Counted from the first letter of the stretch, positions 22,492 through 40,520 are shown. The stretch: 64,000 nucleotides of DNA from Terrisporobacter glycolicus ATCC 14880 = DSM 1288 (GCF_036812735.1 NZ_CP117523.1:3410001-3474000), one strand, 5' to 3'. The notes: generated from the sequence alone by a model not told the origin. Numbers and translations: made by a program.

Positions 22492-22584
22492 GTTTTTTAA
22501 CCCTTAGAAAAAGTAACTTTGTTTTATCATAAGAATTATAATTTACATAATATTCTACTTTCCCCGAGTATGAATTATGTTATT

Positions 22585-22699: not shown

Positions 22700-23299
22700 C
22701 TAATTATTAGGTTTTCTTATCATACAATATTGTGTTAACTTTTCATATTGTTGCTTCTTTACTACTTCAAAACCAAAATGTTTATATATATGAACATTGG
22801 TAAGATTTTGTGTTTCCAGTGTGACCACTATATTTTCTTTGTCTGCCTCTTCAAAAACACTTTTTATTATTTCCTTAGCTAATCCTTTATTTCTGTATTT
22901 TTCATCCACAACTATTAGGTCTATGTGTATAAATTCACCTTTTACAAATTCGTCTATCCATGCTGATGAATTGTTGTATATGGCTTTTCCAAATCTTATA
23001 AATTCTTTTATTGATATATGCTTCATCATTGATATAAGCTTTGTTGAATATTTTATTAAGTTATATAGTTGGGTTGATTTTTTTATATTGTGCTTATTGT
23101 AAAATATGTATCCTATGGCCTGGGCATCTTTTGATGGTGATACTATGGTTCCTGTTGGGTACATATTTGTGTAGCAATAAAAAAATTTTCCCAGTGCTTT
23201 TAATCTTGTTTTGTTGTTTTGCAGTATGTAAGTGTATAGTGTGTCATCATAAAATTCTTTTGCTAGTATTTTTGAGATTCCTCTTCTGGATATGCTCAA
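22700..23299 (-). CDS. GNAT family N-acetyltransferase
   Basis: About 200 residues with an acetyl-CoA binding motif A (DLIVVDEKYRNKGLAKEII) and a C-terminal NVHIYKHFGFEVV, typical of GNAT proteins. The acceptor is unknown. The start is uncertain. The TTG at 23297-23299 has AAAGGA only two bases before it. A better ribosome site, AAGGAG (23329-23334), lies exactly 8 nt before an in-frame ATT (23318-23320); starting there adds ILYTEKD, which matches the usual GNAT N-terminus. It lies between the helicase and the LPD28-like gene at the edge of the Dnd region. Confidence 0.82.
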   Translation of the reverse strand: MSISRRGISKILAKEFYDDTLYTYILQNNKTRLKALGKFFYCYTNMYPTGTIVSPSKDAQAIGYIFYNKHNIKKSTQLYNLIKYSTKLISMMKHISIKEFIRFGKAIYNNSSAWIDEFVKGEFIHIDLIVVDEKYRNKGLAKEIIKSVFEEADKENIVVTLETQNLTNVHIYKHFGFEVVKKQQYEKLTQYCMIRKPNN

Positions 23300-23780: not shown

Positions 23781-24163
23781 ATTAAATTCTCCTTAAATGC
23801 TAATATATAAATTATATACCTCATTTCTTTCTGTGTCTTTATATACTAAATCTTATAATTTTTTAATTTTACAAGCATCCCTATAAATCATAGTATTATC
23901 AAATTTTAAAGATACTCTATTTCATTCTAAATTTATAAAATCACTTAATATCGCATAAAATTCAATCTACTCTATCATTCTATCTTTAATACTCCAAATA
24001 CATTATTCTTAAATATGTTCTTCATAGATAATATTATCATAATAATTCCACATAAATAAAGTCATCTAATCATGATATAAGTCAAAAAATGTGCTATAAT
24101 GATAAGTGATCCATTTTTATAAAAAAGGATTATTTTCTAAAAAAACAGAAAGGATTTGAATAT
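23781..24163. other. 383-bp divergent promoter region upstream of dndC
   Basis: Very AT-rich space between the LPD28-like gene (-) and dndC (+). It holds the dndC promoter near 24091-24100. No dndB gene or fragment is present. Confidence 0.55.
24091..24100 (+). promoter_or_regulatory. Extended -10 promoter of dndCDE
   Basis: TGCTATAAT gives a perfect -10 with an upstream TG (extended -10). No good -35 is seen at 17 nt. The leader to the ATG is about 55 nt. Confidence 0.6.
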
Positions 24164-25627
24164 ATGGCTGCTAATTTTTTAGATGAAAATTCAATAGAAA
24201 GTATATACGACGAAATGCAAGCCGTATATCTTAATGATAATAGACCTTGGATTATAGGTTATAGTGGTGGAAAAGATAGTACAGTTTGCACAGAGTTAAC
24301 ATTTAGGATGTTAATGAGACTTCCTAAAGAAAAAAGAATTAAACCAGTTTATATCGTATCGTCAGATACATTAATAGAAAATCCAGTTATCCTAAACTTT
24401 TTAAATTATAATATAAAAAAAATAAATGAAAGTGCTAAGGAATTAGATTTACCAGTTGAGGCTACAGTTGTTCAACCTGAATCAACTAATACTTACTGGT
24501 CTAATATAATCGGTAAAGGATACCCAACGCCAAAATCTATACAATATAGATGGTGTACAGAAAGACTTAAAATTAAGCCTTCTAATGACTTTATAAAAAA
24601 ACAATTAGAAAAAGAAGACGTTGTTGTAATACTTGGTGTACGTAAAGATGAAAGTATTGCAAGAAAAGCGAGAATAGAAAAAAGAGAAATCGATGGTTAT
24701 CTTTTAACACCTCATAAAACATTAAGAAGTAAAAACAAATTAGCATATGTTTATACACCTATAGTTGATTTTACTACTGCTGATGTTTGGGACGTTTTAG
24801 TTAACTCTAACGAAAATACAGTTCCTACTCCTGATGATATATTTGACCATCCAGCTACTTGTTGGGGAACAGATACTATGGAGTTATTTAACTTATACCT
24901 TAAAGGTACTGGTGATTCTGGAGAATGTCCATTTATAGCTGATGAGTCAACTGCAAAAAGTAGTTGTGGTAATAGTAGATTTGGATGTTGGATTTGTACT
25001 GTAGTTAAAGAAGACAAATCTTTAAACGGATTTATAGAATCTGGACATGATGAACTAAAACCACTTGTTGAGTTCAGAAAATGGATATTAGAAAACAGAG
25101 ATATTCCTGAAAATAGAAAAATGCATAAAAGAAATGGTGCTGTTATAAAAAGAGATGGAAGGATAATGATGGGACCTTTTACTTTTGAAGCAAGACAAAA
25201 GATTTTAATAAAATTATTAGAAACTCAAATTGAAATGCAAAAGTTTTATCCTGAACTTGAGTTAATAACATTAGATGAACTTAAAGCAATAAATGATATA
25301 TGGGATGATGAAGAAGACTTAACATCTGCTACTCTTTTAAAAATTTACAAAGAAGTAATAGGAAAAGAACTTCCATGGTCAGAATATAAAAAGCCTATGT
25401 TTGATCCTTCTACTCTTGATATAGTAAATCAAAAATGCAGTGAGTATAAAGTAGATACTGACTTATTTAGTAAATTATTAATTGACTCTAATAAATTTAA
25501 ACATTTTAGCAACAATACTAAATTAAAGAACTCAGTTAATAAAATATTAAATCAACAATGGCTACATCAAGATATAGTAGAAAAGATCGAAGCAGAAAGT
25601 AGCAAGGAGCTAAATTATGAAGATTAA
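24164..25627 (+). CDS. dndC: DNA phosphorothioation protein DndC
   Basis: A 487-residue PAPS-reductase-like ATP pyrophosphatase. SGGKDST (34-40) is the nucleotide loop. Cysteines that can hold the 4Fe-4S cluster are C233, C255, C268, C275 and C278 (WGT, GECPF, SSCGN, GCWIC contexts), with C131 in RWCTERLKI. DndC activates the DNA backbone with ATP so that sulfur from a cysteine desulfurase replaces a non-bridging oxygen. No dndA is in the window; a host IscS/NifS-like enzyme would have to supply sulfur. First gene of dndC-dndD-dndE, 11-nt overlap with dndD, ATG after AGAAAGGA. Confidence 0.95.
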   Translation: MAANFLDENSIESIYDEMQAVYLNDNRPWIIGYSGGKDSTVCTELTFRMLMRLPKEKRIKPVYIVSSDTLIENPVILNFLNYNIKKINESAKELDLPVEATVVQPESTNTYWSNIIGKGYPTPKSIQYRWCTERLKIKPSNDFIKKQLEKEDVVVILGVRKDESIARKARIEKREIDGYLLTPHKTLRSKNKLAYVYTPIVDFTTADVWDVLVNSNENTVPTPDDIFDHPATCWGTDTMELFNLYLKGTGDSGECPFIADESTAKSSCGNSRFGCWICTVVKEDKSLNGFIESGHDELKPLVEFRKWILENRDIPENRKMHKRNGAVIKRDGRIMMGPFTFEARQKILIKLLETQIEMQKFYPELELITLDELKAINDIWDDEEDLTSATLLKIYKEVIGKELPWSEYKKPMFDPSTLDIVNQKCSEYKVDTDLFSKLLIDSNKFKHFSNNTKLKNSVNKILNQQWLHQDIVEKIEAESSKELNYED

Positions 25628-27776
25628 TAAACTTGTATTAAAAAACTTTAGATCTTATGAAGAAGAAACTGTATTTGATTTTACTACTACTAATGATAAA
25701 AATATTATTCTTGTTGGTGGTAAAAACGGCGCAGGTAAATCAACAATATTTGAAGCTATTAAGGTGTGTATTTATGGACCTATTGCATATAAATATCAAG
25801 GATTTAATTCTTCATATATTTCTAAAATTAAATCAAATATAAATAATAATTCATTAAAAAATGATAGTGTTGATGCATTTGTATCTATAGATATTGAATT
25901 AACTGAGAATACAGAAAAAAATACTTATACATTATCAAGAGAATGGACTTATGAAGATAAAAAATTGAATGAGAAATTCTATGTTTATAAAAACCACTCT
26001 ACTTCTCCTTTAGATGAAGAAGAGTTAAATTACTTTGAAAATTATATTACGTCAATAATATCACCTAAGATATTTGAATTTTTCTTCTTTGATGGTGAAC
26101 ATTTATCTGAGTTTTTCATAGGTAAAAACTCTAATGTTCATTTAAAAGAATCTCTGTTATCTCTATGTAATTTTGATACTTTTGAAGTATTAAAGAATAC
26201 AATCATCTCAAATAACAGAAGTAGCAAAAACTCTAGTGACGAAATTGAAATAGCAAAAGAAAATTATCTAAACTTAGAAGATAAACTTCGTCAATTATGT
26301 ACTGAGGAAGAAATACTAAGTAACGATCTTCAAAATCTTTCAAATGAATTAGAAGATTTACAACAAGACCAAGTTAAATTAAACAATGATTTCAGAAAAA
26401 AAGGTGGACTTTTAGCTGAAGAAAGAGACTCTTTTAATGCTCGAATTGTTCAACTTGAATCAAGAAGAAGTTTTATTAATCAGAATATAAAAGATTTCTG
26501 TAATGAAATGCTTCCTTTTTTAATTGTTAAAAATAACCTACTAAATCTTGAAAAACAATTAAAAACAGAAAATGAAAGTTTACTATATAATCATTTAAAA
26601 GATAAACTTAATATGAAATATATAAAAAATATTCTTTTAGGAAAAATTGATGATTCTGTATTAGATTCAGTTGCTGTAACTGTTTCTGATTCTTTAGTAG
26701 AAGATATTAAGCCTGATGGATATGGTGACCATTTAGAAACTATATATAATTTATCCAGTGAGGAAAATAGCACTTTATCTAGTCTGATAAAAACAATTTT
26801 ATCTACAGATAACAAAAGTACTCTAGATTTATTTGATGAACTTAGGAATATTGCTAATGAGTTAGCAGAAATAAGGCAAAAACTAAATGCTAGCTTAGAG
26901 GACAACTCCTTAAATGTATATTTAGATTCTCTATCAGATTTAACTACTCAAATAGCTAAATTAAGTGAAAACAAAAATATACTAAATAGTAAATTTGAAC
27001 TTTTAACTAATAAAATTGATGCTATGAATACTGAAAGAGATAAGTCTAAAGCTAAGTATACTGAACTTCTTCAAGCTAATAAAATTATTGATATGTCTGA
27101 TAATCTTATTCTTATGTTAGATGATATTGTATCAACTTTAACAGATAATAAGATTAAAGAAATTCAAAATAATTTTATGACTATATTCAAAAAAATTATA
27201 CAAAAAGATAATTTCATTGACTTTATTAATGTAGATAGTAAATTTAATGTTTCGTTATATATAAATAAAATGTACTCTTCTTTAGAAATAGAAAATTTAA
27301 TTAGTAACATAGGCTATGATGAAATGGAGAAAAAATTAGGTAAGCTATTCTTCCAAGATTTATTTGAAATATATAATGTTGAAAATAAAACTGATCTATC
27401 ATCTGCTATAAAAAATAATACTCAATCTTCATTCCTAGATTTGAGAACAAAAATTGATATTAACGGATTCTCTAGTGGAGAAAAACAAATCTATATACTT
27501 TGTCTATATTGGGCTTTAATTAAGTCATCCGATATAGAAATACCATTTATTATAGATACTCCTTATGCTAGGATAGATGAAACTCATAGAAATAATATTA
27601 CTAGTGAATATTTATCTAGTATTAGTAATCAAGTTATTATACTATCTACAAATACAGAAATTGATGAGAAGTCGTATAGAGAAATCAAACCAAAATTAAA
27701 CGGTGAATATCTAATCGAATATGATGATAAAAATAGAAAAACAATACAAAGTAAAGGATACTTTTTTGAGGTGTAA
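25617..27776 (+). CDS. dndD: DNA phosphorothioation protein DndD (SMC-like ATPase)
   Basis: A 719-residue SMC/Rad50-like ATPase: Walker A GGKNGAGKST (34-43), two long coiled-coil arms in the middle, the signature SSGEKQ (619-624), and Walker B IPFIID (642-647). DndD provides the ATPase that is thought to open or nick DNA for sulfur insertion, working with DndC and DndE. Translation is likely coupled: its ATG lies within the last codons of dndC behind AAGGAG. Length and order are as in known dnd operons. Confidence 0.95.
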   Translation: MKINKLVLKNFRSYEEETVFDFTTTNDKNIILVGGKNGAGKSTIFEAIKVCIYGPIAYKYQGFNSSYISKIKSNINNNSLKNDSVDAFVSIDIELTENTEKNTYTLSREWTYEDKKLNEKFYVYKNHSTSPLDEEELNYFENYITSIISPKIFEFFFFDGEHLSEFFIGKNSNVHLKESLLSLCNFDTFEVLKNTIISNNRSSKNSSDEIEIAKENYLNLEDKLRQLCTEEEILSNDLQNLSNELEDLQQDQVKLNNDFRKKGGLLAEERDSFNARIVQLESRRSFINQNIKDFCNEMLPFLIVKNNLLNLEKQLKTENESLLYNHLKDKLNMKYIKNILLGKIDDSVLDSVAVTVSDSLVEDIKPDGYGDHLETIYNLSSEENSTLSSLIKTILSTDNKSTLDLFDELRNIANELAEIRQKLNASLEDNSLNVYLDSLSDLTTQIAKLSENKNILNSKFELLTNKIDAMNTERDKSKAKYTELLQANKIIDMSDNLILMLDDIVSTLTDNKIKEIQNNFMTIFKKIIQKDNFIDFINVDSKFNVSLYINKMYSSLEIENLISNIGYDEMEKKLGKLFFQDLFEIYNVENKTDLSSAIKNNTQSSFLDLRTKIDINGFSSGEKQIYILCLYWALIKSSDIEIPFIIDTPYARIDETHRNNITSEYLSSISNQVIILSTNTEIDEKSYREIKPKLNGEYLIEYDDKNRKTIQSKGYFFEV

Positions 27777-27778
27777 TT

Positions 27779-28162
27779 ATGGGATTTAGACTTAAAACTT
27801 CATTAGAAACAAAAGAGATATTTGAAGAGTTAGGTAGTCGAATGAACTTAAAACCATTTGCTTTATCTAAGCTAGCTATTTCAATGTCTCTAACTAATAA
27901 TGAACCAATTGAAAATTATAAGAGTCTTGATAATAATGGCCTTGAACTTAATAGACAAACTATTACAGCTCAATATGATTTATTATTTAAAACTCTGATA
28001 GAACAACATGCCGGCAAGCATCTTACTGACGATGAGTACTTCCCTACTCATGCTAAACTTCATATTGATCGTGGTGCTGTTATGTTGAAGAATCGATATA
28101 ATTATTCTAGTAACATGGAACATTTTATTAATCAGATAATACAAAATGATATTAGTATATAA
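27779..28162 (+). CDS. dndE: DNA phosphorothioation protein DndE
   Basis: A 127-residue basic protein matching DndE: RLKTSLETKEIFEELGSRMNLKPFALSKLAI at the start and a KLHIDRGAVML segment near the C-terminus. DndE binds nicked DNA and is required for sulfur insertion with DndC and DndD. It starts two bases after the dndD stop and ends the operon at a shared terminator. Confidence 0.93.
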   Translation: MGFRLKTSLETKEIFEELGSRMNLKPFALSKLAISMSLTNNEPIENYKSLDNNGLELNRQTITAQYDLLFKTLIEQHAGKHLTDDEYFPTHAKLHIDRGAVMLKNRYNYSSNMEHFINQIIQNDISI

Positions 28163-28199
28163 AAAAGCCTCTACTTAAATATTTTAAGTAGAGGCTTTT
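28163..28199. terminator. Bidirectional terminator between dndE and the DUF262 gene
   Basis: A perfect 16-bp stem (28163-28178 with 28184-28199), 5-nt loop, placed between the convergent dnd operon (+) and DUF262 gene (-). Confidence 0.88.
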
Positions 28200-28201
28200 A
28201 A

Positions 28202-30016
28202 TTATTTTCTTTTTAATACATCTTCGTAAAATACTTTTGCTAATTTTTTAGCTCTTTCTTCTATTTTATTTTTATTGAATTCTTTAACAGATTTGTATTC
28301 TTCTATAAATTTATTTATAAACTTATAATCAGATTCATCATATGCATCTATTTTTTTGCTAAATTCATCATCACCTATTTTTGAATTTATATAATTTTCA
28401 AGTAGAATTAAATTCCCTATGTTAAAGGTATTTTCATCTTCTTTATTCTCAGGTAATATATGTTCTACAGATCCATTTCTCTTTTGTACATCCTCATCTG
28501 AGTAATATTTTTCAATATTATATAAAACATACTTTGAAAGCATATTATTTTTTTTAACTTTGTTTGTTTTCCTTTTAACACTCTTTTCCCTAAACTCTAA
28601 TTTTATGAAAGCCTCTTCAAATTCTGAATAAGATGGGTATATACTATCCAATTCTTGTTTTAGATTATCTATCGCTTTATTTACTTCATCTTTCGTCTTT
28701 GAATTAAATAAACACTTCGAAAAATTAGTAAATTTATTTGTAAGCGCAGAACCTCTTTTTCCACATAATCCTATATATACAAAATGAAATTGATGTAAAT
28801 AAGTTAATATCTCTTTAAATTTCTTTCCACTTAATATGCCTTTTTCGTTTTCTACAAACATAGATTTTTTATGAACTTCAATATATTTATATGTAAATCT
28901 ACAGCTAAATAATGATAGTAATGCTATCCTTACTTGAGAAACGTCTAATGTATTATTAAAGTACTCTAAGTGTTCTACTATATAATCATACTGTTGTTTA
29001 TTACCATAATGTTGTCTAGCCGGAAACAATAGTTTCATATAAATTTTAGACATATACTCCATATCTTCTATAAAGTCTTTGTATCCAGACTTATTAACTA
29101 GATTTATAAAATCAGAATAAATTTCATTTTCACTACTATTCTTATATTTTGATTTCCAATAATGATTAAAAAATACTGGAAATTCAACAGCACTATCTTC
29201 ATGAAGTAAATTATCTTTTATATTACACCATACATTATACGCATGATCTGTAGGATTCACAGTATTCAACTCTTTAAAGATTGTATTTTTAATTATGTCT
29301 ATAGAATCTAATTTCTTGCCTCTTCCGTTTAATATTTCGAATATTGTATTTGAATCTTTTCTGTCAGTTACAATAATACATATTATTTTACTTCCTATCA
29401 ATTGATGCCTTATTCCTTTTAATAACTCAACATATTCTATATCTCTAAAACTTTCACTCTTATGTATCTTTTCTAATCTTTTTTTAAGATTTTCTTCAGA
29501 TAATATAGATCTAAATTCATCATATGCCAATAATATTCTTTCTTGCTCCTCATCTACGGGATTTTTTTTACACTTACCTTTCATTTGGATTAGATATTCA
29601 AAAAAGTCACCTTTTGTATCTGTAGACAATATATTATATATATCTCCATCATCATCCTCTGCCATAACATATTCCCATACTTTATCTCCCAATTTTTTTT
29701 CTGGTATTTCATAAAATGTTTTAGCTAAAGCTGATAATAATATTGTCATTGTTGTTATTCTTTGTTGACCATCAATAACTTCAAGTTCTCCGCCTTGTTC
29801 TTCATTATTTCCTGCTAATAATGCTGTTCCAAAAAAATAATCACTTGTTTTAACTTTGCTATCAACAATTTTTAATCCTTTTAAAATATCATTTATAAAC
29901 TCTGATACTTCTTTTTTTTCCCACGAATAATCTCTTTGATATCTAGGTATTTTTAATATTCTCTTGTTATTGGTCAATAATGAACCTACATTCCAATTTT
30001 CAAATAAAAAACTCAA
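28202..30016 (-). CDS. DUF262-DUF1524 protein, SspE/GmrSD-like restriction nuclease
   Basis: A 604-residue protein with an N-terminal DUF262 ParB-like NTPase domain (IPRYQRDYSW at 23-32; DGQQRITT at 82-89) and a C-terminal DUF1524 HNH-type nuclease (VEHILPEN with H519, NIGNLILL at 532-539). GmrSD enzymes cut modified phage DNA. SspE, with the same two domains, is stimulated by phosphorothioate DNA and nicks phage DNA. Its place at the end of the dptFGH operon and opposite dndCDE suggests an SspE-like partner of this phosphorothioation system. TTG start, 9 nt after GGGAGG. The link to phosphorothioation is inferred from location. Confidence 0.8.
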   Translation of the reverse strand: MSFLFENWNVGSLLTNNKRILKIPRYQRDYSWEKKEVSEFINDILKGLKIVDSKVKTSDYFFGTALLAGNNEEQGGELEVIDGQQRITTMTILLSALAKTFYEIPEKKLGDKVWEYVMAEDDDGDIYNILSTDTKGDFFEYLIQMKGKCKKNPVDEEQERILLAYDEFRSILSEENLKKRLEKIHKSESFRDIEYVELLKGIRHQLIGSKIICIIVTDRKDSNTIFEILNGRGKKLDSIDIIKNTIFKELNTVNPTDHAYNVWCNIKDNLLHEDSAVEFPVFFNHYWKSKYKNSSENEIYSDFINLVNKSGYKDFIEDMEYMSKIYMKLLFPARQHYGNKQQYDYIVEHLEYFNNTLDVSQVRIALLSLFSCRFTYKYIEVHKKSMFVENEKGILSGKKFKEILTYLHQFHFVYIGLCGKRGSALTNKFTNFSKCLFNSKTKDEVNKAIDNLKQELDSIYPSYSEFEEAFIKLEFREKSVKRKTNKVKKNNMLSKYVLYNIEKYYSDEDVQKRNGSVEHILPENKEDENTFNIGNLILLENYINSKIGDDEFSKKIDAYDESDYKFINKFIEEYKSVKEFNKNKIEERAKKLAKVFYEDVLKRK

Positions 30017-30114
30017 TAAATTTATCCTCCCAATTATACCTTTTTACTATATTATTCCATTATTATTCATTATTGTAAATATTTGTAACATAAATAATAG
30101 TAATTTTTAATTTA

Positions 30115-33100
30115 CTATTTTATTAACTCCCAAAATGCCTTATCTTTCATAAATATAGCTCTATCACTATCCCCCATCTTAACTAAGCTATAATGTTTAT
30201 TTAAACCTTTAATCTTATTACAAATATGCTCTTGTTCTGACTTTTCTTGTAAATTGAATATATATTTAGCATCCTTCAAGCTAATCTCTGCCACATTATG
30301 AACTATCCAAGTTAAAACATAGTCCGAGTATTTATTTTCACCTGTAGAGAAATGACTTAGTAACTGAGTTGAAAGTATTGTACCTACGCCAAACTCTCTA
30401 CCTTCTTTAAGTATTTTCTTCAGTGTCTCAAAGTCTTTACTTAAGAAGTTATCAGCTTCATCAACTAAAATCATTTTATTTAATTGTCTCATATTACCAT
30501 CTATTCTAGAATGTCCATGAGCTTGCATTTGTGAATAGAATAAATCTAGTGTAATTGCTACTACTAAGTTTTGTATATCTGGATCATATCCTGATAAATC
30601 AATAACTGTTACACCGTCTACTAAATCAAATAAACTTTTAGTTTCATTTCCATCTGGCTCAAAAATTTCAAAGTCTATTAAATTACTAAATGCTGCATAT
30701 AAACTATCTTCTTTTAAATCCTCTCTATTAACATATAAATCATATACATCTTTCAATGTTGGTGCTGGTTTATCCCAAGTATCAGGTTTATTCTTTATTA
30801 TACCTTTACTTTCATAAGCATCCATTATTAAATCTCTAAGTAAAGTTTCTTGCTTAATACCTAAACCAAATGCTTTTGCTAAAGTTACCTTTAAGCTATT
30901 TGCTGTATGAAGTGGTAACATAGGCTTAGAGTTTTTAGCTGTTATTACTGATAATGGATTGAATGGTAAATGATATAATTCATATACATTGGCACCTGTT
31001 GCTTCAATAAAATCTTCTTTTGATTTATTGTAATCGCCTTTATAGTCAAAGATTAATATTCCTAATTTATGTCCATCTACATTATTTTTTGATTCTCTAT
31101 ATAACTGAGTAACTAATGATTTTGTAAACTGAGTTTTTCCAGTTCCCATAGTACCTATTATACCTGTATTTGTATGAAGCACTTTATTAGTATCGTTTGG
31201 TTCCCAGTAAACTTTTTTATTATTTTTCTGATTAATACCAAATAAAATATCCATACTTCTTGATGAAGCATCTGGATTTGTATTTCCATATCCTTCACTT
31301 CCACCTTCTACTACATGCCCATCATCTATAACTTCTGTTGGAGGATCATTTGGCACAGCTAACTCTACTGCCCCACCTATTTCTCCTGTACCATGATCAT
31401 ATACTGTTTTAGGAATATTATCTAGGTCCTGACCATTCGTACCTTCAAATTTAACTTTGTCTAAATTCTCAGCTATTTCGCTTACACTCTTAGTTATAAA
31501 GTTTACACCATCATCTTCAGACATTTCTACAATCATAACTCCATCTTCTACTCCTATATGACTATATCCCATGCCCTTTTTAAAAGATATAACAGCCGCT
31601 TTTCCTAGTACTTCTTCTAGGGATGTAGTTATCTCATACTCTTCATTAAGTAACTTTCTTCTTAAATCTGTACTAGTTATTTCACTCCAGTTTTGATCAT
31701 TACAAACATTATATAAGCATAATTTTTCTGCACTGGCTATAACTAGTTGCATTAAAAAGTTTCTATATACCTTTTGAGTGTTACTTATATCTCCATTTTC
31801 ATCAGGTAATAGTGTTTTTTCAAAGATACTCTTAGTAGCTTTAGCTTGTTCCATACCTTTTTGTATATAAGAATTATCATTTATACCGATCTTCACTTCC
31901 ACTGGATAATAGTGAACAAATACCCTATCGCTATTATTTTCTATACCAACAAATAAGATATCATCACTAGTGACTCCACCTTCAAAACCTAAGTTTTTAG
32001 CTGAGAAAAATCCTTCACTTTGCTTTAATCCTGCTCCACCAGATACCCTTAATATTTCTTCAAGAGATATAGGTACCCAAATGATATTCTCATTTTTAAA
32101 TTGAGCAAGACCTAGCTTGATAGCTGACAATATACTAATTTTTTCTTTAGGAAAATGTGATTTACTTGATAAAAGTCTCAGTAACCAATCTCCATTGACA
32201 GCATTAAACATATTTATAACTGCTGGTGAATATTCATTAGCATTTTCTACACCATTCTTACTTAAAAATTCTTCAATAACCCTTTGATATGGACCGGACT
32301 TTCTAGTAACTGTTATTGCGTCATATCCACCAGCTGTTGTATATTGATCACTGTAGTGAATTATTAAGAGATCCTTTGCATCTGGATCATTTTTAAAGAA
32401 GTTTAAATCAACTTTAGGGTCTATAAAAGTTATCCAGTGACTTGCATCATAAATATTTTCTAATATACTTTTGCCATTATTCTGTATAGATATAGCTTTG
32501 CATTGGTTACTATTAAATGGTTCTCCTGAAGATGCTGCATTTAATGCATTTAGTCTTATTGCCATATTCATTAATTTGCTTTGTGTATTTGTAAACTTAG
32601 TTCCAAATCCGGTCCTATACGAATCTCCTAAAAACACTGAAGGTACCCCAGATATATTTCCATTTAATATAACTCCAGATGGTATATCATCCATATTTGA
32701 TGTAATTTTCTTAGCGTTATCATTCATCTCAAAGAACGTTATATGTGCATATTCAACACCATCTTCAATATTCTTAGAATAAAAATGTACCTTTTCTCTG
32801 TATAAGTTTAGTACATCTTCTTCTGACATACTGTCTACACTTAGATCTAGGTTATATATTTCTTTTAATGACTCTATATTTTCATTAAATGCTACTTCTT
32901 CAAATGCATTTGTTATATTTCTATCTGAATATATAAATAAATCAATCGGCAATATTTCATTACTTTGACTGTTTTTTAATTGCTTCACATAGTACTTAAA
33001 TATACCTTGCAATATTTCTTTACTATCACCTGTATTTATTAAATTAATTTTTATGGGAGCATTGTTGCCCATATCAAACATATATTTAAAATGCCCTACA

Positions 33101-35265
33101 AACTCTTCTATTTTCTCATTTACTAATTTTGAAACAAAATCCCTAGAACTTTTATATCTTGGTAAATTTTCATCTACGTAGTACTTCCATTCTGGAGAAT
33201 GCATTTGTTCCATTGGTATAAATAGTCTCTCATCTTCATCAATTATATATGGGAGAAGATAAGTTGATGTAAATTTTTTAAGTACATCATCTGTCATTTC
33301 CTCTGTATCTATACAATCATTTAAATGAAGTTGATAAGCTATATTCAATGGATGAAGAGAAGTAAATATAAGTTCTCTATCTTCTATTTCTCTTTTTATA
33401 GTTCCTAATCTAAATAAGTTCTTTTCTGATTTTGTAAGATAAGATCCCTCTTCAATCTTGTTCAATGCATCAATATATTCTTTTAAAAAATTACTATATA
33501 AATTTTTCAAATCAGAATTTAAATAAGCTAAACTAGGAAGTTTTCTAGATAAATTATAATAATCTATTATCTTTCTATAAGCATTTTCTACACTGGAGTT
33601 AATTTCTAAATCTATACTTTGTATGCCTTCCTTGTCTTCAATAAAACATAAGCCTTCTAATTCTAAAAGTTGCTTTTCAATGGCTAAAGTTTTTCTAAAT
33701 TCATCTCTTGCAAAATATTCTTTCGTTCCGTGTTGTAATTTGTTATCTCCGGCTATTCTAAAGTCACAACTTTTTTCTCTTTTTAACTTCCAGACCTTAA
33801 AGCCTTCAATTGATACGCTCTTTTCATTAGTACCAACCATACCTAGCGGTACTAACTCATTACCTATTCTTAGGTCAAATCTAACTAAATCATTATCATT
33901 TATATATTCAAACTTATCGCTTATTTTAACAGTTAATTTTTCGTCATTAGATATATTTATTACATCATTATTTGAATCTATTTCATAAATAGTGTTTCCT
34001 TGGTTGAACTCATTAAATACAATTTCTGAATCATTCGTATTAATTGAAATATACTTTTCTTTTTTCTTAATTACTAAGGAGTACTTAGATTTTATAGATT
34101 CAAAATATTTAGGACTGCATCTAAACATTGCAATCTTAAACTCAAATTTCAAGTTATCTGCTTTATATACAACTTTGTAAAAATTAGATTTTCCTTCTAC
34201 ATCCTTAATTGTAACTTTTAATTTATACCCTGATGCCTTTACAGAAACTTCTCCTTCTGGTTTTTGAATAAATTCGTTTTTTAAGTAATCATCAAATGAA
34301 AACTCTAAATCAATTTCTTCTTTTCCACTTTCATTAAATACAATTATATTTCTTACTCTTGATTTTGCCTTAGATGGTCCTTCTTCCTTATCCCATTCTT
34401 CTGAACCTGAAAGATATTCGAGAGGCTTTGTATTTTTCTTATTTTCAACAGATTTTTCAACTATTTTATACTCTACTTCCATCCAGTCTTTATTTTTTAA
34501 TTTAGATATTCCATTATCATCAAAATACTTTTCTAATTGTGTCTCTGGATTACCATAGTTGTGTATTTCATCAACTCTAGTAAAATATAATGCATTGTCT
34601 TTTAATCTCTTTTTTAATTCTTTTCCTGTTAATTCATTTAACTTCTCATCATAAAATAAACCAAAGTCTTTATACTGTTCCCTTGGAATATATCCTTTAT
34701 TTAAAATATCAAGTACATCTTCATACTCAAATACTGAATTATTGTCTCCAAATAAGGCATTCTTTTTTCTCTCTAAGTCAGATTCAATTACTGACTTATC
34801 TACCTCACTAAATGAATCTCCTGTTAATTTTTTCTTTATATCTTTTTGAATAGAATCTATATGAAAAGGCATACCACCTTTTGCAAAGGATTCTGTTCCT
34901 CCTATAATACTGTCTAGTGTTGTATTATGAATAAATAATATTGCCTTATTTTCATATCCATCTTCTAGGCCAACCATATTTCTTAACCTAGTAAGAAAAT
35001 CTGGTTGAACATTATCCATTGTAGAAGATATTATTAATCCTATTCCATTAAAATCTAATTGATAAGATTTATATTTTACCTCTCCATTTAAATCCTTATA
35101 TTCATATTCTCTATATAAAATATTATCTTTTAGCTTCTCATACAAATTCCTAACTTGATCTTCTGTCTCAAACTGAATATTATACTTTGAACCAGGAGTT
35201 AAAGGATTTTGTTGAAAAAATTCTATTATCCTTTCAGATAAATAACTATAAAACTGATTTGACAT
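30115..35265 (-). CDS. dptH: Phosphorothioation-dependent restriction protein DptH
   Basis: About 1716 residues. The long N-terminal part has no motif I can name; the C-terminal quarter is a HerA/FtsK-like ATPase with Walker A GTMGTGKT (1371-1378) and Walker B MILVDEAD (1598-1605), then TILSTQLLSHF. DptH with DptF and DptG damages DNA lacking phosphorothioate, completing the Dnd restriction system. I use the ATG 9 nt after GGGG (MSNQFYSYL); a GTG and an ATG just upstream overlap that ribosome site. It overlaps the dptG end, so translation is coupled. The next gene, the DUF262 protein, follows after 98 nt without a clear terminator. Confidence 0.9.
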   Translation of the reverse strand: MSNQFYSYLSERIIEFFQQNPLTPGSKYNIQFETEDQVRNLYEKLKDNILYREYEYKDLNGEVKYKSYQLDFNGIGLIISSTMDNVQPDFLTRLRNMVGLEDGYENKAILFIHNTTLDSIIGGTESFAKGGMPFHIDSIQKDIKKKLTGDSFSEVDKSVIESDLERKKNALFGDNNSVFEYEDVLDILNKGYIPREQYKDFGLFYDEKLNELTGKELKKRLKDNALYFTRVDEIHNYGNPETQLEKYFDDNGISKLKNKDWMEVEYKIVEKSVENKKNTKPLEYLSGSEEWDKEEGPSKAKSRVRNIIVFNESGKEEIDLEFSFDDYLKNEFIQKPEGEVSVKASGYKLKVTIKDVEGKSNFYKVVYKADNLKFEFKIAMFRCSPKYFESIKSKYSLVIKKKEKYISINTNDSEIVFNEFNQGNTIYEIDSNNDVINISNDEKLTVKISDKFEYINDNDLVRFDLRIGNELVPLGMVGTNEKSVSIEGFKVWKLKREKSCDFRIAGDNKLQHGTKEYFARDEFRKTLAIEKQLLELEGLCFIEDKEGIQSIDLEINSSVENAYRKIIDYYNLSRKLPSLAYLNSDLKNLYSNFLKEYIDALNKIEEGSYLTKSEKNLFRLGTIKREIEDRELIFTSLHPLNIAYQLHLNDCIDTEEMTDDVLKKFTSTYLLPYIIDEDERLFIPMEQMHSPEWKYYVDENLPRYKSSRDFVSKLVNEKIEEFVGHFKYMFDMGNNAPIKINLINTGDSKEILQGIFKYYVKQLKNSQSNEILPIDLFIYSDRNITNAFEEVAFNENIESLKEIYNLDLSVDSMSEEDVLNLYREKVHFYSKNIEDGVEYAHITFFEMNDNAKKITSNMDDIPSGVILNGNISGVPSVFLGDSYRTGFGTKFTNTQSKLMNMAIRLNALNAASSGEPFNSNQCKAISIQNNGKSILENIYDASHWITFIDPKVDLNFFKNDPDAKDLLIIHYSDQYTTAGGYDAITVTRKSGPYQRVIEEFLSKNGVENANEYSPAVINMFNAVNGDWLLRLLSSKSHFPKEKISILSAIKLGLAQFKNENIIWVPISLEEILRVSGGAGLKQSEGFFSAKNLGFEGGVTSDDILFVGIENNSDRVFVHYYPVEVKIGINDNSYIQKGMEQAKATKSIFEKTLLPDENGDISNTQKVYRNFLMQLVIASAEKLCLYNVCNDQNWSEITSTDLRRKLLNEEYEITTSLEEVLGKAAVISFKKGMGYSHIGVEDGVMIVEMSEDDGVNFITKSVSEIAENLDKVKFEGTNGQDLDNIPKTVYDHGTGEIGGAVELAVPNDPPTEVIDDGHVVEGGSEGYGNTNPDASSRSMDILFGINQKNNKKVYWEPNDTNKVLHTNTGIIGTMGTGKTQFTKSLVTQLYRESKNNVDGHKLGILIFDYKGDYNKSKEDFIEATGANVYELYHLPFNPLSVITAKNSKPMLPLHTANSLKVTLAKAFGLGIKQETLLRDLIMDAYESKGIIKNKPDTWDKPAPTLKDVYDLYVNREDLKEDSLYAAFSNLIDFEIFEPDGNETKSLFDLVDGVTVIDLSGYDPDIQNLVVAITLDLFYSQMQAHGHSRIDGNMRQLNKMILVDEADNFLSKDFETLKKILKEGREFGVGTILSTQLLSHFSTGENKYSDYVLTWIVHNVAEISLKDAKYIFNLQEKSEQEHICNKIKGLNKHYSLVKMGDSDRAIFMKDKAFWELIK

Positions 35266-36640
35266 ATTGAGCATCCCCACTATCCGATTTTTTTTCTAGT
35301 AAATTTAATTTTTCGTACAATTGAACTATTTTCATCTTTGAATCCCTATCAAAGAATAGACCTCTTAGTTCAAATTCCTCAAATAATTTATTTAACTTTA
35401 ATTTTTCATTATCATTTATACATATTTTAGTCATTAAAATTATATCGTCTTCCGTGATATTTAAGTTATATCCTAATTGACCTCTTCTTTTAGCAAAATT
35501 CTTTTGAACAAATCTCATAAACCAGTTCCTATAAGCTTCATTAGCTCTATACCTTGTATTAGAGTTTTCAAACTGATATCTTATCGTATCAAATAATTCA
35601 TATACCGAATTAAAACCTTCTACATCATACTCTCTATCTTTAATTTTAAATTCATTCCACTTTACGTCATCAATTTGATTTTTATATAATTCAATAACAG
35701 AACTTATCTGTTTAGCTATTTCTAATCCATCTTCTTCATTAAAAATCTTAGCCAAATCCATATAATTTAATTGTTCATCAGTATCATTATGATTTAACAT
35801 TTCTAATGTAACTGCATGAGAAAATAAAGAATTCAAATCATTTTTTATCTTCTCCCAACCAAATTGGTAAGCTGTTCTAGTTTTAGACGTACGTTCCCAG
35901 TCTAATGTATAATATAGAGGATCTGGCTTACTTAAGTCTGCCTTTTCAAATGCATCAAGTTTCATAACAAGCTGTGATACATAAAAAACATAGTAGTATT
36001 CTAATAGTCGTTTTAATGAATCTTTATATAATTCTTCCTTGGATATTAAAAATTTAAAATCCTTTATAAATTGATCTCGTACAAAAGGTAAGTAACATTT
36101 ATATTCTCCTATAGGTATGTTCTTATCCTTTAGTTCTGGTAATGCTTTTAATACTATATTGTAAAGTATATTGTCAACATCTCTATCATAATGTAGACTT
36201 ACATCTTCTTTTAAATCATCACAAAATAATACCGAGTATAAAAATAATGCTATCTTTTGGTCTGCTGAGGTTGATGACAAGTAATTAATAGTTTTTATAT
36301 CAAAATCAATTAAATTTCCATTATCAATAAACATAGTTCTAACTATGCTTTTAAACGATTCTCTACTCATATCTCCTTCATATTCACCAATTTGATCAGC
36401 AACCTCTTCAATGAAAAGTTCTACTTCAAATTTGCCTTTTAATTCCTTGTTAGATATAATTCTTGAAAATGCACCTACTACTCCTGCAAACTCATTAACT
36501 AGAGTCTTTTCATTTGCTACATATGGTAGTAATTTATATCTGTTACCTTGCTTATGAGTTAAACCTTTTTTATCTTCTGAAATCTTAAAGGTTTCTTTGA
36601 TTCCATTTAAATCTATATTAAAATTATTTATTTCTCCCAT
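35246..36640 (-). CDS. dptG: Phosphorothioation-dependent restriction protein DptG
   Basis: A 464-residue protein with no catalytic motif that I can see; it is recognised from size, acidic helical composition and its fixed place between DptF and DptH. It starts two bases after the dptF stop (GGAG ribosome site inside dptF) and overlaps dptH. Known DptG proteins are required for restriction, but their biochemical role is not settled. Confidence 0.85.
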   Translation of the reverse strand: MGEINNFNIDLNGIKETFKISEDKKGLTHKQGNRYKLLPYVANEKTLVNEFAGVVGAFSRIISNKELKGKFEVELFIEEVADQIGEYEGDMSRESFKSIVRTMFIDNGNLIDFDIKTINYLSSTSADQKIALFLYSVLFCDDLKEDVSLHYDRDVDNILYNIVLKALPELKDKNIPIGEYKCYLPFVRDQFIKDFKFLISKEELYKDSLKRLLEYYYVFYVSQLVMKLDAFEKADLSKPDPLYYTLDWERTSKTRTAYQFGWEKIKNDLNSLFSHAVTLEMLNHNDTDEQLNYMDLAKIFNEEDGLEIAKQISSVIELYKNQIDDVKWNEFKIKDREYDVEGFNSVYELFDTIRYQFENSNTRYRANEAYRNWFMRFVQKNFAKRRGQLGYNLNITEDDIILMTKICINDNEKLKLNKLFEEFELRGLFFDRDSKMKIVQLYEKLNLLEKKSDSGDAQYVKSVL

Positions 36641-36642
36641 AG

Positions 36643-39033
36643 CTAAATCTCCATAAATCTATATATTTCAAATTCATCATCATATTCTAATTTGAACTTT
36701 TTATTGTTATCTCTATTTTTTTCTGTAAATATTAATTCTTTGTTTTGAGATCCTGATGATTCAATCTTATTCATAAATTCAATGAATTTTATAAATTGGT
36801 TTTTATCTTTTTTGTTAGGTCTATAACCATTACCAACTCTTATCAGCAACTCATATAACGGAAAATCTATATCTATTCCATAACTTACATTCGCCTTATC
36901 ACTTTTATATTTTATTTCAATTGTTGTTAAGAATTTTTCTAATTTACTTTCATTATTAGATGGCAGATTACCCGTATCAGCCTTTAATTCTAAATATTCA
37001 CTTGTCTTATATTTAATCTGGCTCTTTCCTATAAATATGTTGATAAAGTTTTTATCAGCTTCTCCGTTCCATTTTAATACTCCATCTTTTACTTCTGAAT
37101 ATAGATCCTTTAACCTAGGTTTATCTCCTTTATTCCAGTGATATAAATATTCAATAAAGTTATTATATACTTCATCTCTAAGATCGAATAATTCTCCTTT
37201 TCCACATAAGTAATAACTTCTAATAAATAGTTTTAACACTTCTTTTTTTGTATTTCTATTTATTTTCTCTTCCATTTTATCTTTATTTAAATTATCTAAA
37301 TATCCCTTTGGATAATCTATATACTCTTTAAAAAACTCCATTATATTTGTTGAGTTATTGAATTTAATAATAAAGTCATCTACTTCTCTATTTCTAACGT
37401 TAAGAGGATCTAGTGTACTTAATGATTTAAATATAAATGATAACTCATTCTGTTCAAAAATCATATTTGGTGTTAATGAGTTTATATATTCTAAATCTTT
37501 AAGCCTACCTATTTTATCCTTAAACATTGGGTCATGTACATCTATATGTGTTCTATTTATTAATAAATCATATATAAAGTTTAATAATGCCCTTGTAGAT
37601 ATGATTATTTTATTTTTTATAATACATTGAACTAATAAATCTACTATTGCCTCTTGAGTTTTATGTTCAGCCATTAACTCATAATTAGCTTTTATGGGAC
37701 ATTTCTGATTATTTTCACATCTAATACAGTTTTTTTGATATGATTTATAGAAATCATTCATTTCTGATTTATCTGTAATTTTTTTTATTAATGATTTAAT
37801 ATATTCTGACTCTATCCTTTCATCTTTTAACGTATACAAGCTGTAATCACTAAAGTTAATAAATTGTATATTTCTATCTGCATCAAATTTATTATCCACA
37901 ATACTTTTCTCTAATATCTTATTTTCATTTACAAATGCTTTTAGCTTTGTGAATCTTTCCCCATATTTTGAGTCAATAAAGTTATTTAACGTTCCTAAAT
38001 TTATTGCTAATATTAATTTTTCATTACTAATTTCTATTTTTTTATCCGTAAAGTTTTCTAGTAAATCGTTTAGAGTATCCATTGATGTTTTATCTGGTTC
38101 TAAACTTTCTGTAGCATCATTATGCAATGTAAATTTAGCTATTATTTCTGGATATTTATTTTTAAAATATGAAATAATGTGAGACTTACCATCTCCAACA
38201 CTACCACATACTAAAATTAACTGTGAATTATCCTGTTTATGCGCTTCTAAAATTATATCTTCTAATTCTCTTTGAACATTTCTATCAACATGCATATACA
38301 TTTTAAAATCTGTAAATACATTTAATCCTTCAACTGCTTCTTTTGAAGACTCTTTTAACTTACTTAGTTCCTGAATCAAACATATACTTTCTGATACTTT
38401 TTCTAAATTATTACTTTCTCTTTCTTTATCATCGTTATTTTTTTCTTCTTGATTCGGTGCATCTGCATCATTTTCACAATCAACTTTTTCTGTCATGTGT
38501 TCAACTTTAATACCTTTGTTATTAATATTTAATATATTTTCTAATTTACCTATTTTTTCAATAAACTTAGACATTATAGTATTATTTTCTTTTTCATTTA
38601 AATTTACATTATGTGATGGTTTTGGACTTTTATAAATAGGTGTTTTAAAAGTATAATCTACATATGTTTCTATAAACCAACCTGTTATTTTGTAAACATT
38701 TCTATGCACTTGCAAAGCTAATAGTAATTCGTCTTCAACATCTTCATGCGCTGCTTTATTACCAATTTTTCTAATTTCATAAAAATAATCATTAATTTCT
38801 TTATCAAGTATTTCATTATATCTTAAGTTTGTTAATCTATCTGCCAAACTTAAATTATCTAGTTTTGGCATATTCTCTAATTTTGCTATGTCTTTACTTA
38901 TTTGTTCAGCAAATATCCTAGCTTTTACAATCACACTGTGTGGTGACGTAAATATGGAATCATTTATCTCATTACAAAGATTATACAATTCACTATAATT
39001 TTTATTTAATAACTCGTACATGTTACTATTCAC
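36643..39033 (-). CDS. dptF: Phosphorothioation-dependent restriction protein DptF, with N-terminal extension
   Basis: A 796-residue protein. Residues about 1-125 form a helical domain like DUF4145 (AEQISKDI, RKIGNKAAHE), as found in restriction proteins. A linker (140-215) leads to a P-loop ATPase with GSVGDGKS (277-284). A CIRCENNQKC segment around 445-455 could bind zinc. DptF is the ATPase partner of DptGH. The extension ahead of the ATPase may be an added domain. Start is uncertain: GTG at 39031-39033 or the ATG four codons later. Confidence 0.85.
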   Translation of the reverse strand: MNSNMYELLNKNYSELYNLCNEINDSIFTSPHSVIVKARIFAEQISKDIAKLENMPKLDNLSLADRLTNLRYNEILDKEINDYFYEIRKIGNKAAHEDVEDELLLALQVHRNVYKITGWFIETYVDYTFKTPIYKSPKPSHNVNLNEKENNTIMSKFIEKIGKLENILNINNKGIKVEHMTEKVDCENDADAPNQEEKNNDDKERESNNLEKVSESICLIQELSKLKESSKEAVEGLNVFTDFKMYMHVDRNVQRELEDIILEAHKQDNSQLILVCGSVGDGKSHIISYFKNKYPEIIAKFTLHNDATESLEPDKTSMDTLNDLLENFTDKKIEISNEKLILAINLGTLNNFIDSKYGERFTKLKAFVNENKILEKSIVDNKFDADRNIQFINFSDYSLYTLKDERIESEYIKSLIKKITDKSEMNDFYKSYQKNCIRCENNQKCPIKANYELMAEHKTQEAIVDLLVQCIIKNKIIISTRALLNFIYDLLINRTHIDVHDPMFKDKIGRLKDLEYINSLTPNMIFEQNELSFIFKSLSTLDPLNVRNREVDDFIIKFNNSTNIMEFFKEYIDYPKGYLDNLNKDKMEEKINRNTKKEVLKLFIRSYYLCGKGELFDLRDEVYNNFIEYLYHWNKGDKPRLKDLYSEVKDGVLKWNGEADKNFINIFIGKSQIKYKTSEYLELKADTGNLPSNNESKLEKFLTTIEIKYKSDKANVSYGIDIDFPLYELLIRVGNGYRPNKKDKNQFIKFIEFMNKIESSGSQNKELIFTEKNRDNNKKFKLEYDDEFEIYRFMEI

Positions 39034-39489
39034 TCTCTTTTGTTCCCCCCATAAATTAATCTGTTCTCTATCTAAAATGTTAAGTAAACATAAATTATTT
39101 ATATGTTTATTCTATATAGACTAATTTTCATCCTATAATAATATTATAAATTGTAATTATTTGTTTGAGATCCATTTACACGAAATAAAATATATTTTAG
39201 AAAATAGAAAATTTCCATATACTTCTAAGTACTCTAATAATTTATACACAAAGCTTAATACACTCCTATAAATATTTATATTTCGCATTTAAAGGCTTAC
39301 ACAAATTCGTGTACCCCTTATTTTCAATAAATAATATATCATAAGTTTCATATATTATTTGTCATTTAATGTCGATATTTTAAAGGAAATATACTCCTCT
39401 ACTCACATAAAAAAATGGCCGTAACAAAAATGTAACGGCCTTAAAAAAAATATATGATTTTATATATATCAATACATCTCCCCAAAGTT
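39034..39489. other. 456-bp intergenic region upstream of dptF
   Basis: AT-rich spacer that must hold the dptF promoter; a TATAAT on the - strand (39143-39148) lacks a good -35. The words TACACGAA (39177-39184) and TTCGTGTA (39306-39313) are inverted copies about 120 bp apart. A terminator sits at 39417-39440. No gene is visible. Confidence 0.5.
39417..39440 (-). terminator. Terminator after the HEPN fragment, repeat-like
   Basis: GGCCGT pairs with ACGGCC and, after one mismatch, three more pairs form; A and T tracts flank both sides. Its core CAAAAATGTAACG (39425-39437) recurs inverted at 40825-40837 and, with two differences, at 41076-41088. Confidence 0.65.
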
Positions 39490-39705
39490 CTAGCTTTCAA
39501 GGAAATCTTTTAATTTTTTAAACTCAAATACGTATTTTTCTTTTACTAATTTCACAATATTAAGAGCTGTAGTTTCATCATACATGTGAGATGTTCTGTT
39601 TCTATGTAACATCATTTCTATCCATATATCTCCATCACTTATTAATTTATGTTTAAATGCACATCTTATAGTACTTCTTGGTCTAAAACCCCTTATAATT
39701 GCCAT
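39490..39705 (-). CDS. Truncated HEPN (HepT/HI0074-like) protein
   Basis: A 71-residue protein that aligns with only the C-terminal half of the nucleotidyltransferase substrate-binding (HI0074/HepT) family: DGDIWIEMMLHRNRTSH, where R35-x4-H40 is the HEPN RNase motif. The N-terminal helices, about 60 residues, are absent. No MntA-like nucleotidyltransferase is nearby. Its ATG overlaps the J-protein stop by 13 nt. It may be a fossil or a minimal domain; if folded, it would need the missing helices from another protein. Confidence 0.6.
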   Translation of the reverse strand: MAIIRGFRPRSTIRCAFKHKLISDGDIWIEMMLHRNRTSHMYDETTALNIVKLVKEKYVFEFKKLKDFLES

Positions 39706-40520
39706 AGCTCCTTCAAATCATTGATTATCTGCATAGCTCTCACACTTTCATCACTATTATGGTTTTTATCAGGATGAAAATTTCTAGCCAAAGTCTTATA
39801 CATTTTTTTCAATATTTTCTTATCATCTTCACCGTAATCGGAATTATTCATTGAGCTGTCTTTGTAGTTACTACCACATTTTTCTTGGTAGCTACTTTTC
39901 TTAGAATTGTCTTTGTAGTTACTATAATTTTTTCTTTGGTAACTACCTGTAAAGTAATCTTGTTTTGCATAGATCTGCTTTATTTTCTTTAGGTTTTCTG
40001 CATTTCTCAAATTTAGAAATACGTCGTAGCAATAATCAAAATTTCCTGCTCCGTATTTATCTTCAAACTCTGTCTTAGCTTTTCTGTATTTTCGCAAAAT
40101 TTCCTCCACCTCCATAGAACACTTATACTCCTCAGTATCTTTGTATTCCTGGTTTATTTTTTCTTGCAGAGGGTTTAATTTGCAACATACCAAGCTATAA
40201 ATTTCCTCACCTGTCATGTTTAATTCTTGGGATAAATTATTTATTTTATCCACCACAAAATCGTAGTACCCATAATCTACGAAATCGTAATACCCAATGG
40301 TGCAAATGCTATATTGTCTCTTTTTCACCTTGTTGTTTTCCCTGTAGCTGCTGTGCAATGTGACTTTGTATGCTGTTTTCACTGATCGTTGAAATTTTTC
40401 CTGGGAATGAGTGTAGGAGTAAAATTCCTGGTTATTGATTTTACAAGCATTCACTACTAATCCCTTGCTCTTCCCTTTGCTGGAAGCTTTTCTCTCAAGT
40501 TCTTGAACAACACAATACAA
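39693..40520 (-). CDS. J-domain protein with unknown N-terminal region
   Basis: A 275-residue protein ending in a compact J domain (KKMYKTLARNFHPDKNHN; HPD at 249-251), which should stimulate an Hsp70. The N-terminal 170 residues match no family that I know. Residues around GYYDFVDYGYYDFVVD and NYKDNSKKSSYQ...NYKDSS show short internal duplications. It begins at TTG, 9 nt after AAAGGA, and overlaps the HEPN fragment gene. Upstream lies the repeat array at 40757-40909. Function unknown. Confidence 0.7.
   Translation of the reverse strand: MYCVVQELERKASSKGKSKGLVVNACKINNQEFYSYTHSQEKFQRSVKTAYKVTLHSSYRENNKVKKRQYSICTIGYYDFVDYGYYDFVVDKINNLSQELNMTGEEIYSLVCCKLNPLQEKINQEYKDTEEYKCSMEVEEILRKYRKAKTEFEDKYGAGNFDYCYDVFLNLRNAENLKKIKQIYAKQDYFTGSYQRKNYSNYKDNSKKSSYQEKCGSNYKDSSMNNSDYGEDDKKILKKMYKTLARNFHPDKNHNSDESVRAMQIINDLKELWQL

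What the first reader, a model, noticed from the sequence alone, without database searches (positions are those of the whole stretch)
24164..39033. Dnd phosphorothioation locus carrying two candidate restriction effectors
The sequence shows dndC-dndD-dndE on + and, convergent to it, dptF-dptG-dptH then a DUF262-DUF1524 gene on -. Established knowledge: DptFGH is the usual Dnd restriction module, while SspE (DUF262 plus HNH-type DUF1524) belongs to the separate Ssp phosphorothioation system. Both together beside one DndCDE set suggests a hybrid with two lines of attack. No dndB and no dndA are present. That the DUF262 protein senses phosphorothioate is inference.
Basis: partly seen in the sequence, partly recalled or inferred. 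Interest (0 to 1): 0.75.

Follow-up and report, generated by a model that had tools for sequence, protein, structure and literature searches.

The report
Dnd locus with swappable nuclease gene
This is an intact bacterial anti-phage system that marks its own DNA with sulphur and cuts unmarked DNA; it carries an extra nuclease gene in a slot where other bacteria keep different defence genes, so the pairing is of a published kind, but this nuclease belongs to a separate lineage and the slot itself looks like an exchange site.

Summary
Window 24164-39033 holds intact dndCDE (+) and, convergent to it, dptF-dptG-dptH followed by a 604-aa DUF262-DUF1524 gene (-). The pairing is not new. Salmonella DndI (NAR 2024, PMC11662687; PDB 9JFL) is a DUF262-HNH protein co-transcribed with dndFGH, and that paper counts 72 genomes with dndBCD, dndFGH and dndI. 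No SspE hybrid is needed: DndI is the nearest solved relative by sequence and by fold. The window protein is nevertheless not a DndI orthologue. A DndI clade (9JFL, Pontibacter, Intestinibacter) excludes it (AU p = 2.7e-6). Its nearest relatives (36-38%) are a prophage/phage copy and genes in two genomes without dndC. What is new here is the place. The interval between the stop codons of dptH and dndE is an exchange slot. Against Intestinibacter, alignment of the dnd (85%) and dpt (79%) genes breaks exactly at those two ends; each holds a different DUF262 gene. Within E. coli, 96-97% identical flanks hold unrelated cassettes. Elsewhere the slot holds AIPR, RADAR, HATPase-methyltransferase, RelA/SpoT or nothing. 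Whether the window protein reads phosphorothioate cannot be told from sequence; the tyrosine said to sense it also occurs in half of the unlinked relatives.

The parts
24164..25627 (+). dndC, PAPS-reductase-like sulphur-transfer enzyme of DNA phosphorothioation (487 aa)
   Evidence: TIGR03183 406 bits, above cut-off; PADLOC DndC 472 bits
25617..27776 (+). dndD, SMC/ABC-type ATPase (719 aa)
   Evidence: TIGR03185 377 bits; PADLOC DndD 403 bits
27779..28162 (+). dndE, ribbon-helix-helix DNA-binding subunit (127 aa)
   Evidence: PF08870 92 bits, above cut-off; 93% identical to the Intestinibacter protein
28163..28199 (.). 37-base hairpin (17 pairs) with T tails on both sides, between the convergent 3' ends of dndE and the DUF262 gene; probable two-way terminator
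   Evidence: sequence
28167..30110 (.). exchange slot: interval not shared with Intestinibacter (other DUF262 gene), Clostridioides difficile HC132 (no gene) or Romboutsia (AIPR gene), although dndE and dptH align on both sides
   Evidence: blastn break points at window 28166 and 30111
28202..30016 (-). DUF262-DUF1524 (ParB/Srx-like NTPase plus HNH nuclease) protein, 604 aa, TTG start behind a GGGAGG site; motifs P24/Y26/Q27, DGQQR 82-86, H519, N544; closest to PADLOC HEC-06, then Orf5 (= DndI)
30115..35280 (-). dptH (dndH), 1721 aa, with C-terminal HerA/FtsK ATPase
   Evidence: TIGR03237 744 bits, above cut-off; PADLOC DndH 2871 bits
35246..36640 (-). dptG (dndG), 464 aa
   Evidence: TIGR03236 187 bits; PADLOC DndG 532 bits
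36643..39033 (-). dptF (dndF), 796 aa, with an N-terminal ~220-residue DUF4145/HsdR-N-like extension
   Evidence: TIGR03238 293 bits, residues 241-790; DUF4145 residues 22-97
23794..39319 (.). whole dnd-dpt block as an insertion at a genus-level defence hotspot; two sister species carry other restriction systems here

Best explanation
A complete DndCDE modification set (sulphur presumably from a housekeeping desulfurase) and its DptFGH restriction complex, carrying in the DndI position a DUF262-DUF1524 nuclease from another, mobile-element-borne lineage. The gene sits in an exchange slot bounded by the 3' ends of dptH and dndE, where unrelated defence cassettes replace one another. SHOWN by sequence: the genes, their intactness, the separate ancestry of this nuclease from DndI, and the sharp cassette boundaries. 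INFERRED: DndCDE puts phosphorothioate (PT) into host DNA; DptFGH nicks DNA lacking it; the DUF262 domain hydrolyses NTP and controls the HNH domain, which nicks or cuts DNA. I think it more likely (about 60:40) that this protein acts as a second layer that does not need PT, for instance against phage DNA with modified bases as BrxU does beside BREX, than that it is licensed by PT as DndI is.
For: Gene identities. Among solved structures the protein is nearest to DndI by sequence (9JFL, E 3e-10; profile E 1e-83) and by predicted fold (pLDDT 85; 9JFL E 5e-15, TM 0.53; SspE 2e-11; BrxU 3e-5). DGQQR, HNH H519 and N544 are kept. Separate ancestry: the DndI clade of 9JFL, L139 and L078 is 98-100% supported, the window protein falls with L024, L025 and phage copy L164 (97/94), and one clade of window plus DndI group is rejected (p 2.7e-6), as is a single clade of all slot proteins. 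None of the 137 unlinked DUF262 frames fetched (some duplicated) has dnd or dpt genes nearby, and the two closest host genomes have no dndC. Slot: alignment to Intestinibacter breaks at window 28166 and 30111; E. coli H240 and TL-14 share dptFGH at 96.2% and dndBCDE at 97.2% but have unrelated cassettes between them; all 14 DUF262 hits around dptH lie downstream on the same strand, none upstream of dptF. The slot also holds AIPR, RADAR, HATPase plus methyltransferase and others.
Against: DndI is itself PT-licensed, and the window gene occupies the same operon position. DUF262-DUF1524 genes have entered this slot at least three times, which could mean that PT-reading is what makes them useful here. 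The window protein has Tyr at the PT-sensing position while its three closest unlinked relatives have Phe. Nothing here measures PT, expression or nuclease activity. Deep branches of the tree are long and partly unsupported, and the unlinked sequences were sampled with window-derived patterns.
Confidence: 0.57

Rival explanations
1. A DndI-like PT-licensed effector: the DUF262 domain senses phosphorothioate through a hydrophobic patch with Y26, ATP hydrolysis then releases the enzyme from self DNA, and the HNH domain nicks phage DNA that lacks PT, as shown for Salmonella DndI.
For: Same operon position as dndI (last gene after dptH, same strand, 98-bp gap). Same two-domain layout, best solved match is DndI. 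P24, Y26, Q27, DGQQR, H519 and N544 align with DndI P23, Y25, Q26, DGQQR, HNH His and N541. Repeated recruitment of this architecture to the slot.
Against: The same residues occur in unlinked relatives: Tyr in 52 of 102, Phe in 35, Asn in 13, so they are not diagnostic. A slot protein of Saccharibacillus (L101) has Phe there. The clade lives mostly without dnd genes, whereas DndI is toxic without PT (PMC11662687). A common clade with DndI is rejected.
Confidence: 0.33
2. An SspE-type effector borrowed from an Ssp system, giving a Dnd/Ssp hybrid.
For: Shared DUF262 plus DUF1524 domains; SspE is the second-best fold.
Against: SspE profiles match only the N-terminal ~100 residues (65 bits, against HEC-06 207 and Orf5 164 over the full length). 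SspE is ~770 aa with a large insert. No ssp genes were found in the locus.
Confidence: 0.03
3. A plain defence-island passenger: an unrelated gene that happens to lie between two Dnd modules, with no functional tie to them.
For: The locus is a hotspot; sister species carry other restriction systems at the same place. Many cassette types share the slot.
Against: Exact placement between the two stop codons, same strand as dptH in all cases, within ~100 bp in 8 of 13 loci, and never upstream of dptF, which argues for co-transcription with dptFGH.
Confidence: 0.07

Closest known systems
IscS-DndBCDE-DndI with dndFGH (Salmonella enterica Cerro 87; PMC11662687, PDB 9JFL)
   Same: One Dnd modification set, dndFGH and a DUF262-DUF1524 gene in one locus, the latter cotranscribed with dndFGH there; same domains, catalytic motifs and overall fold.
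   Different: The window has no dndB; its nuclease is about 16% identical to DndI in the structural alignment, lies in another supported clade, and comes from a lineage mostly unlinked to dnd. PT-sensing is unproven.
PADLOC HEC-06 (Hma-embedded candidate 06; single-gene defence)
   Same: Best PADLOC match over the full length (207 bits); DUF262-DUF1524, single gene; antiviral activity reported for HEC-06 (PMC12988326).
   Different: The window gene is embedded in Dnd, not in an Hma locus; 207 bits is a distant match; mechanism of HEC-06 not established here.
PADLOC Orf5 models (PDLC02686-02702)
   Same: DUF262-DUF1524 proteins; 9JFL DndI scores 954 bits on PDLC02701, so Orf5 includes DndI. Window scores 164 on PDLC02693.
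   Different: Window prefers HEC-06; the Orf5 matches are distant.
GmrSD / BrxU type IV enzymes (BrxU inside BREX; PMC8565348)
   Same: DUF262-DUF1524 single polypeptide placed inside another modification-based defence locus, giving two layers.
   Different: BrxU is a weak match (profile E 1e-4, fold E 3e-5); specificity for modified cytosine not tested for the window protein.
SspE of SspABCD-SspE
   Same: DUF262 and DUF1524 domains, DGQQR, PT-reading Tyr position.
   Different: ~770 aa; only the N-terminus aligns well; different system.

Membership tests
Dnd modification module (DndCDE) | dndC, dndD and dndE adjacent and intact | tested here: met
Dnd modification module (DndCDE) | phosphorothioate in genomic DNA | not testable with these tools
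   needs LC-MS/MS or iodine cleavage
Dnd modification module (DndCDE) | cysteine desulfurase (DndA or IscS) available | tested here: met
   none in the locus; two desulfurases 35-40% identical to clostridial DndA elsewhere in the genome; which one serves is unknown
DndFGH restriction module | dptF, dptG, dptH together, intact, above curated cut-offs | tested here: met
DndI | N-terminal DUF262 with DGQQR plus C-terminal DUF1524 HNH | tested here: met
DndI | gene in the dndFGH operon beside dndBCDE | tested here: met
   last gene after dptH, same strand; co-transcription itself not measured; dndB absent
DndI | falls in the clade of Salmonella DndI | tested here: not met
   AU p 2.7e-6 against one clade; PADLOC prefers HEC-06
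DndI | PT-stimulated ATPase and PT-protected self DNA | not testable with these tools
   Y26 equivalent present but not diagnostic
SspE | full-length SspE profile and sspABCD partners | tested here: not met
   N-terminal match only, 65 bits; partners are DndCDE
HEC-06 | full-length match to PADLOC HEC-06 models as best family | tested here: met
   207 bits, residues 7-594; distant, and PADLOC's own thresholds are not shown
GmrSD / BrxU | cleavage of DNA with modified cytosine | not testable with these tools
   weak similarity to BrxU

The most novel reading that the evidence does not exclude
The junction between dptH and dndE is a general exchange site of Dnd loci: whole effector cassettes (DndI-type and HEC-06-type DUF262 nucleases, AIPR, RADAR, HATPase-methyltransferase, DGQHR proteins, DUF262 plus ATP-dependent nuclease) are swapped precisely between the two stop codons by recombination in the conserved flanks, so that one PT modification set serves a changing second effector.
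Probability: 0.5. Interest if true: 0.6.

Novelty: new variant of a known kind. Interest (0 to 1): 0.42.

Why it matters
The two-effector Dnd locus itself is known. What the comparison adds is where second effectors live: a fixed slot with exact ends, in Clostridia and in E. coli, that can be mined for unknown defence genes, and in which one can ask whether each cassette needs phosphorothioate. The window protein is a useful test case, because its lineage exists both with and without Dnd, so PT-dependence can be compared between relatives.

Tried and rejected
SspE membership: rejected on profile coverage. DndI orthology: rejected by tree and AU test, though the fold is DndI's. PT-sensing tyrosine as proof: rejected, since Tyr occurs in half of the unlinked relatives. 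An own promoter for the DUF262 gene: a TTTACA-17-AATAAT site lies in the 98-bp gap (30079-30051), but such sites are no commoner than in shuffled sequence (107 found, 123 expected), so nothing is concluded. A genome-contig scan with the DUF262 protein alone found no relatives; searching whole genomes worked. A sister relation of the window and Saccharibacillus slot proteins was tested and rejected, so they look like separate recruitments.

Full report
WHAT IS THERE. dndC, dndD and dndE run on the + strand at 24164-28162, and dptF, dptG, dptH and a 604-residue DUF262-DUF1524 gene run on the - strand at 39033-28202; all frames are intact. Curated profiles name the Dnd and Dpt genes above their cut-offs, except that DndE passes the Pfam cut-off only. 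The DUF262 gene has a TTG start behind a GGGAGG site, starts 98 bases after dptH, and shares a 37-base two-way hairpin with dndE at 28163-28199. dndB is absent from the genome; two cysteine desulfurases 35-40% identical to clostridial DndA lie elsewhere.

THE SETTING. The window lies in a 4.06-Mb genome of the family Peptostreptococcaceae: a genome of the same family in the search set, G015, has the same 42,618-base contig as Intestinibacter bartlettii N19. In sister species the genes on both sides, a GNAT gene (22700-23299) and a DnaJ-like gene (39693-40520), are conserved at about 90%. What lies between them differs: one species has a C5-methylase and MutH-type nuclease, another an NgoFVII-like restriction-modification pair plus an AIPR, DUF4420, Z1 and HATPase set. 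The whole dnd-dpt block therefore sits at a defence hotspot.

IS THE PAIRING NEW? No. Tang et al. 2024 (PMC11662687) describe Salmonella DndI, a DUF262-HNH protein co-transcribed with dndFGH that works with IscS-DndBCDE. They report 72 genomes with dndBCD, dndFGH and dndI together. DndI nicks DNA, is toxic without PT, and is released from PT-marked DNA when PT raises its ATPase; Y25 is needed for the PT response. PADLOC already holds such proteins as Orf5: the 9JFL sequence scores 954 bits on Orf5 model PDLC02701.

WHAT IS THE DUF262 PROTEIN? Against solved structures it is nearest to DndI by sequence (E 3e-10; profile E 1e-83 against SspE 7e-27 and BrxU 1e-4). Its predicted model (pLDDT 85) also matches DndI best (E 5e-15, TM 0.53), then SspE, then BrxU. 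In PADLOC its best full-length match is HEC-06 (207 bits), then Orf5 (164), while SspE matches the N-terminus only (65). In a tree of 114 relatives and a careful tree of 35, DndI, Pontibacter L139 and Intestinibacter L078 form one clade. The window protein falls with two clostridial genes (37-38% identical) and a prophage/phage copy, inside a larger set of phage and plasmid genes. Holding the window protein with the DndI clade is rejected (p 2.7e-6), and so is one clade of all slot proteins. None of the unlinked relatives has dnd or dpt genes nearby, and the genomes of the two closest have no dndC. The nearest plasmid relative lies next to the portal gene of a P2-like phage-plasmid.

DOES IT READ PHOSPHOROTHIOATE? 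Sequence cannot say. It has the equivalents of DndI P23, Y25, Q26, DGQQR and the HNH residues (N541 = N544), but among 102 unlinked relatives the tyrosine position is Tyr in 52, Phe in 35 and Asn in 13, and a slot protein of Saccharibacillus has Phe. That the lineage lives without Dnd, whereas DndI harms PT-free cells, makes me lean towards a PT-independent second layer, as BrxU is for BREX (PMC8565348). The odds are only about 60:40.

THE SLOT. The best 80 DptH loci of GTDB were read with flanks of up to 10 kb. Thirteen loci including the window hold DUF262-DUF1524 genes; all fourteen hits lie downstream of dptH on its strand, eight within about 100 bases, and none upstream of dptF. Against Intestinibacter, the dnd genes align at 84.6% and the dpt genes at 78.7% of bases; alignment stops at window 28166 and 30111, the ends of dndE and dptH, and the DUF262 genes between are not orthologous. 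Clostridioides difficile HC132 has no gene in the slot and Romboutsia has an AIPR gene, with similar break points. Other occupants are AIPR (C. neonatale, Flavobacterium), HATPase plus Methyltransf_35 (Paenibacillus, Anaerobacterium), RADAR rdrB with its neighbours (a Peptostreptococcaceae MAG), RelA/SpoT, NB-ARC with HNH, helicase with DndD-like genes, and DGQHR proteins. In E. coli, strains H240 and TL-14 share dptFGH at 96.2% and dndBCDE at 97.2% but hold unrelated cassettes. Of about 204 dnd-positive genomes, 123 have the DGQHR cassette (109 of them most of it) and 31 the DUF262 plus ATP-dependent nuclease cassette, each at 99% or more; others hold another DGQHR pair or a restriction endonuclease pair. 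Rakesh et al. 2024 (PMC10853773) noted diverse nucleases at Dnd loci but, in the text searched, not this fixed slot.

LIMITS. Only 80 of 315 DptH loci were read, chosen by similarity to the query. The unlinked DUF262 sequences were sampled with patterns from the window's own group, which inflates that group. Deep branches are long. How cassettes are exchanged, and whether they depend on PT, is inference. Papers outside the held library were not searched.

Noticed in passing
window 19417-22227 (-): PLD-nuclease plus SF2 helicase plus DUF3427 gene (936 aa) about 2 kb from dndC, absent at this position in two sister species; Rakesh et al. report HKD/PLD-SF2 helicase proteins as usual Dnd neighbours, so it may be a third nuclease of the island.
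   Followed up: partly
window 36643-39033, residues 1-220 of DptF: DptF carries an N-terminal DUF4145/HsdR-N-like extension; Clostridium and Paraclostridium DptF share the length, Romboutsia DptF lacks it.
   Followed up: no
L116 / L020 (Peptostreptococcaceae MAG), slot: A RADAR-like set (rdrB adenosine deaminase 98 bits in PADLOC, a 934-aa neighbour, a 372-aa membrane protein) nested between dptH and dndA.
   Followed up: partly
L090 / L015 (Clostridioides difficile HC132): Dnd locus with empty slot and a dptH split into two frames (1333 and 383 aa): possibly a decayed restriction module beside intact dndCDE.
   Followed up: no
L072 (Enterobacter phage-plasmid pOSUCZ140_3): A broken-up DUF262-DUF1524 gene, the closest plasmid relative of the window protein (32%), next to the portal gene of a P2-like phage.
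   Followed up: partly
L075 and L077 (E. coli), slot: A 400-aa DUF262 protein without DUF1524 followed by an ATP-dependent nuclease; a Menshen-like pair by recollection; the L075 cassette is in 31 E. coli genomes at 99% or more.
   Followed up: partly
L275 399-632 against 1160-1393: A stretch like window 22376-22609 occurs twice in sister species G067, on either side of a copy of window 18950-19381; a possible recombination repeat at the hotspot edge.
   Followed up: no
window 14783-18826 (-): Surface protein with six Shr-like haemoglobin-interacting domains, next to the hotspot.
   Followed up: no
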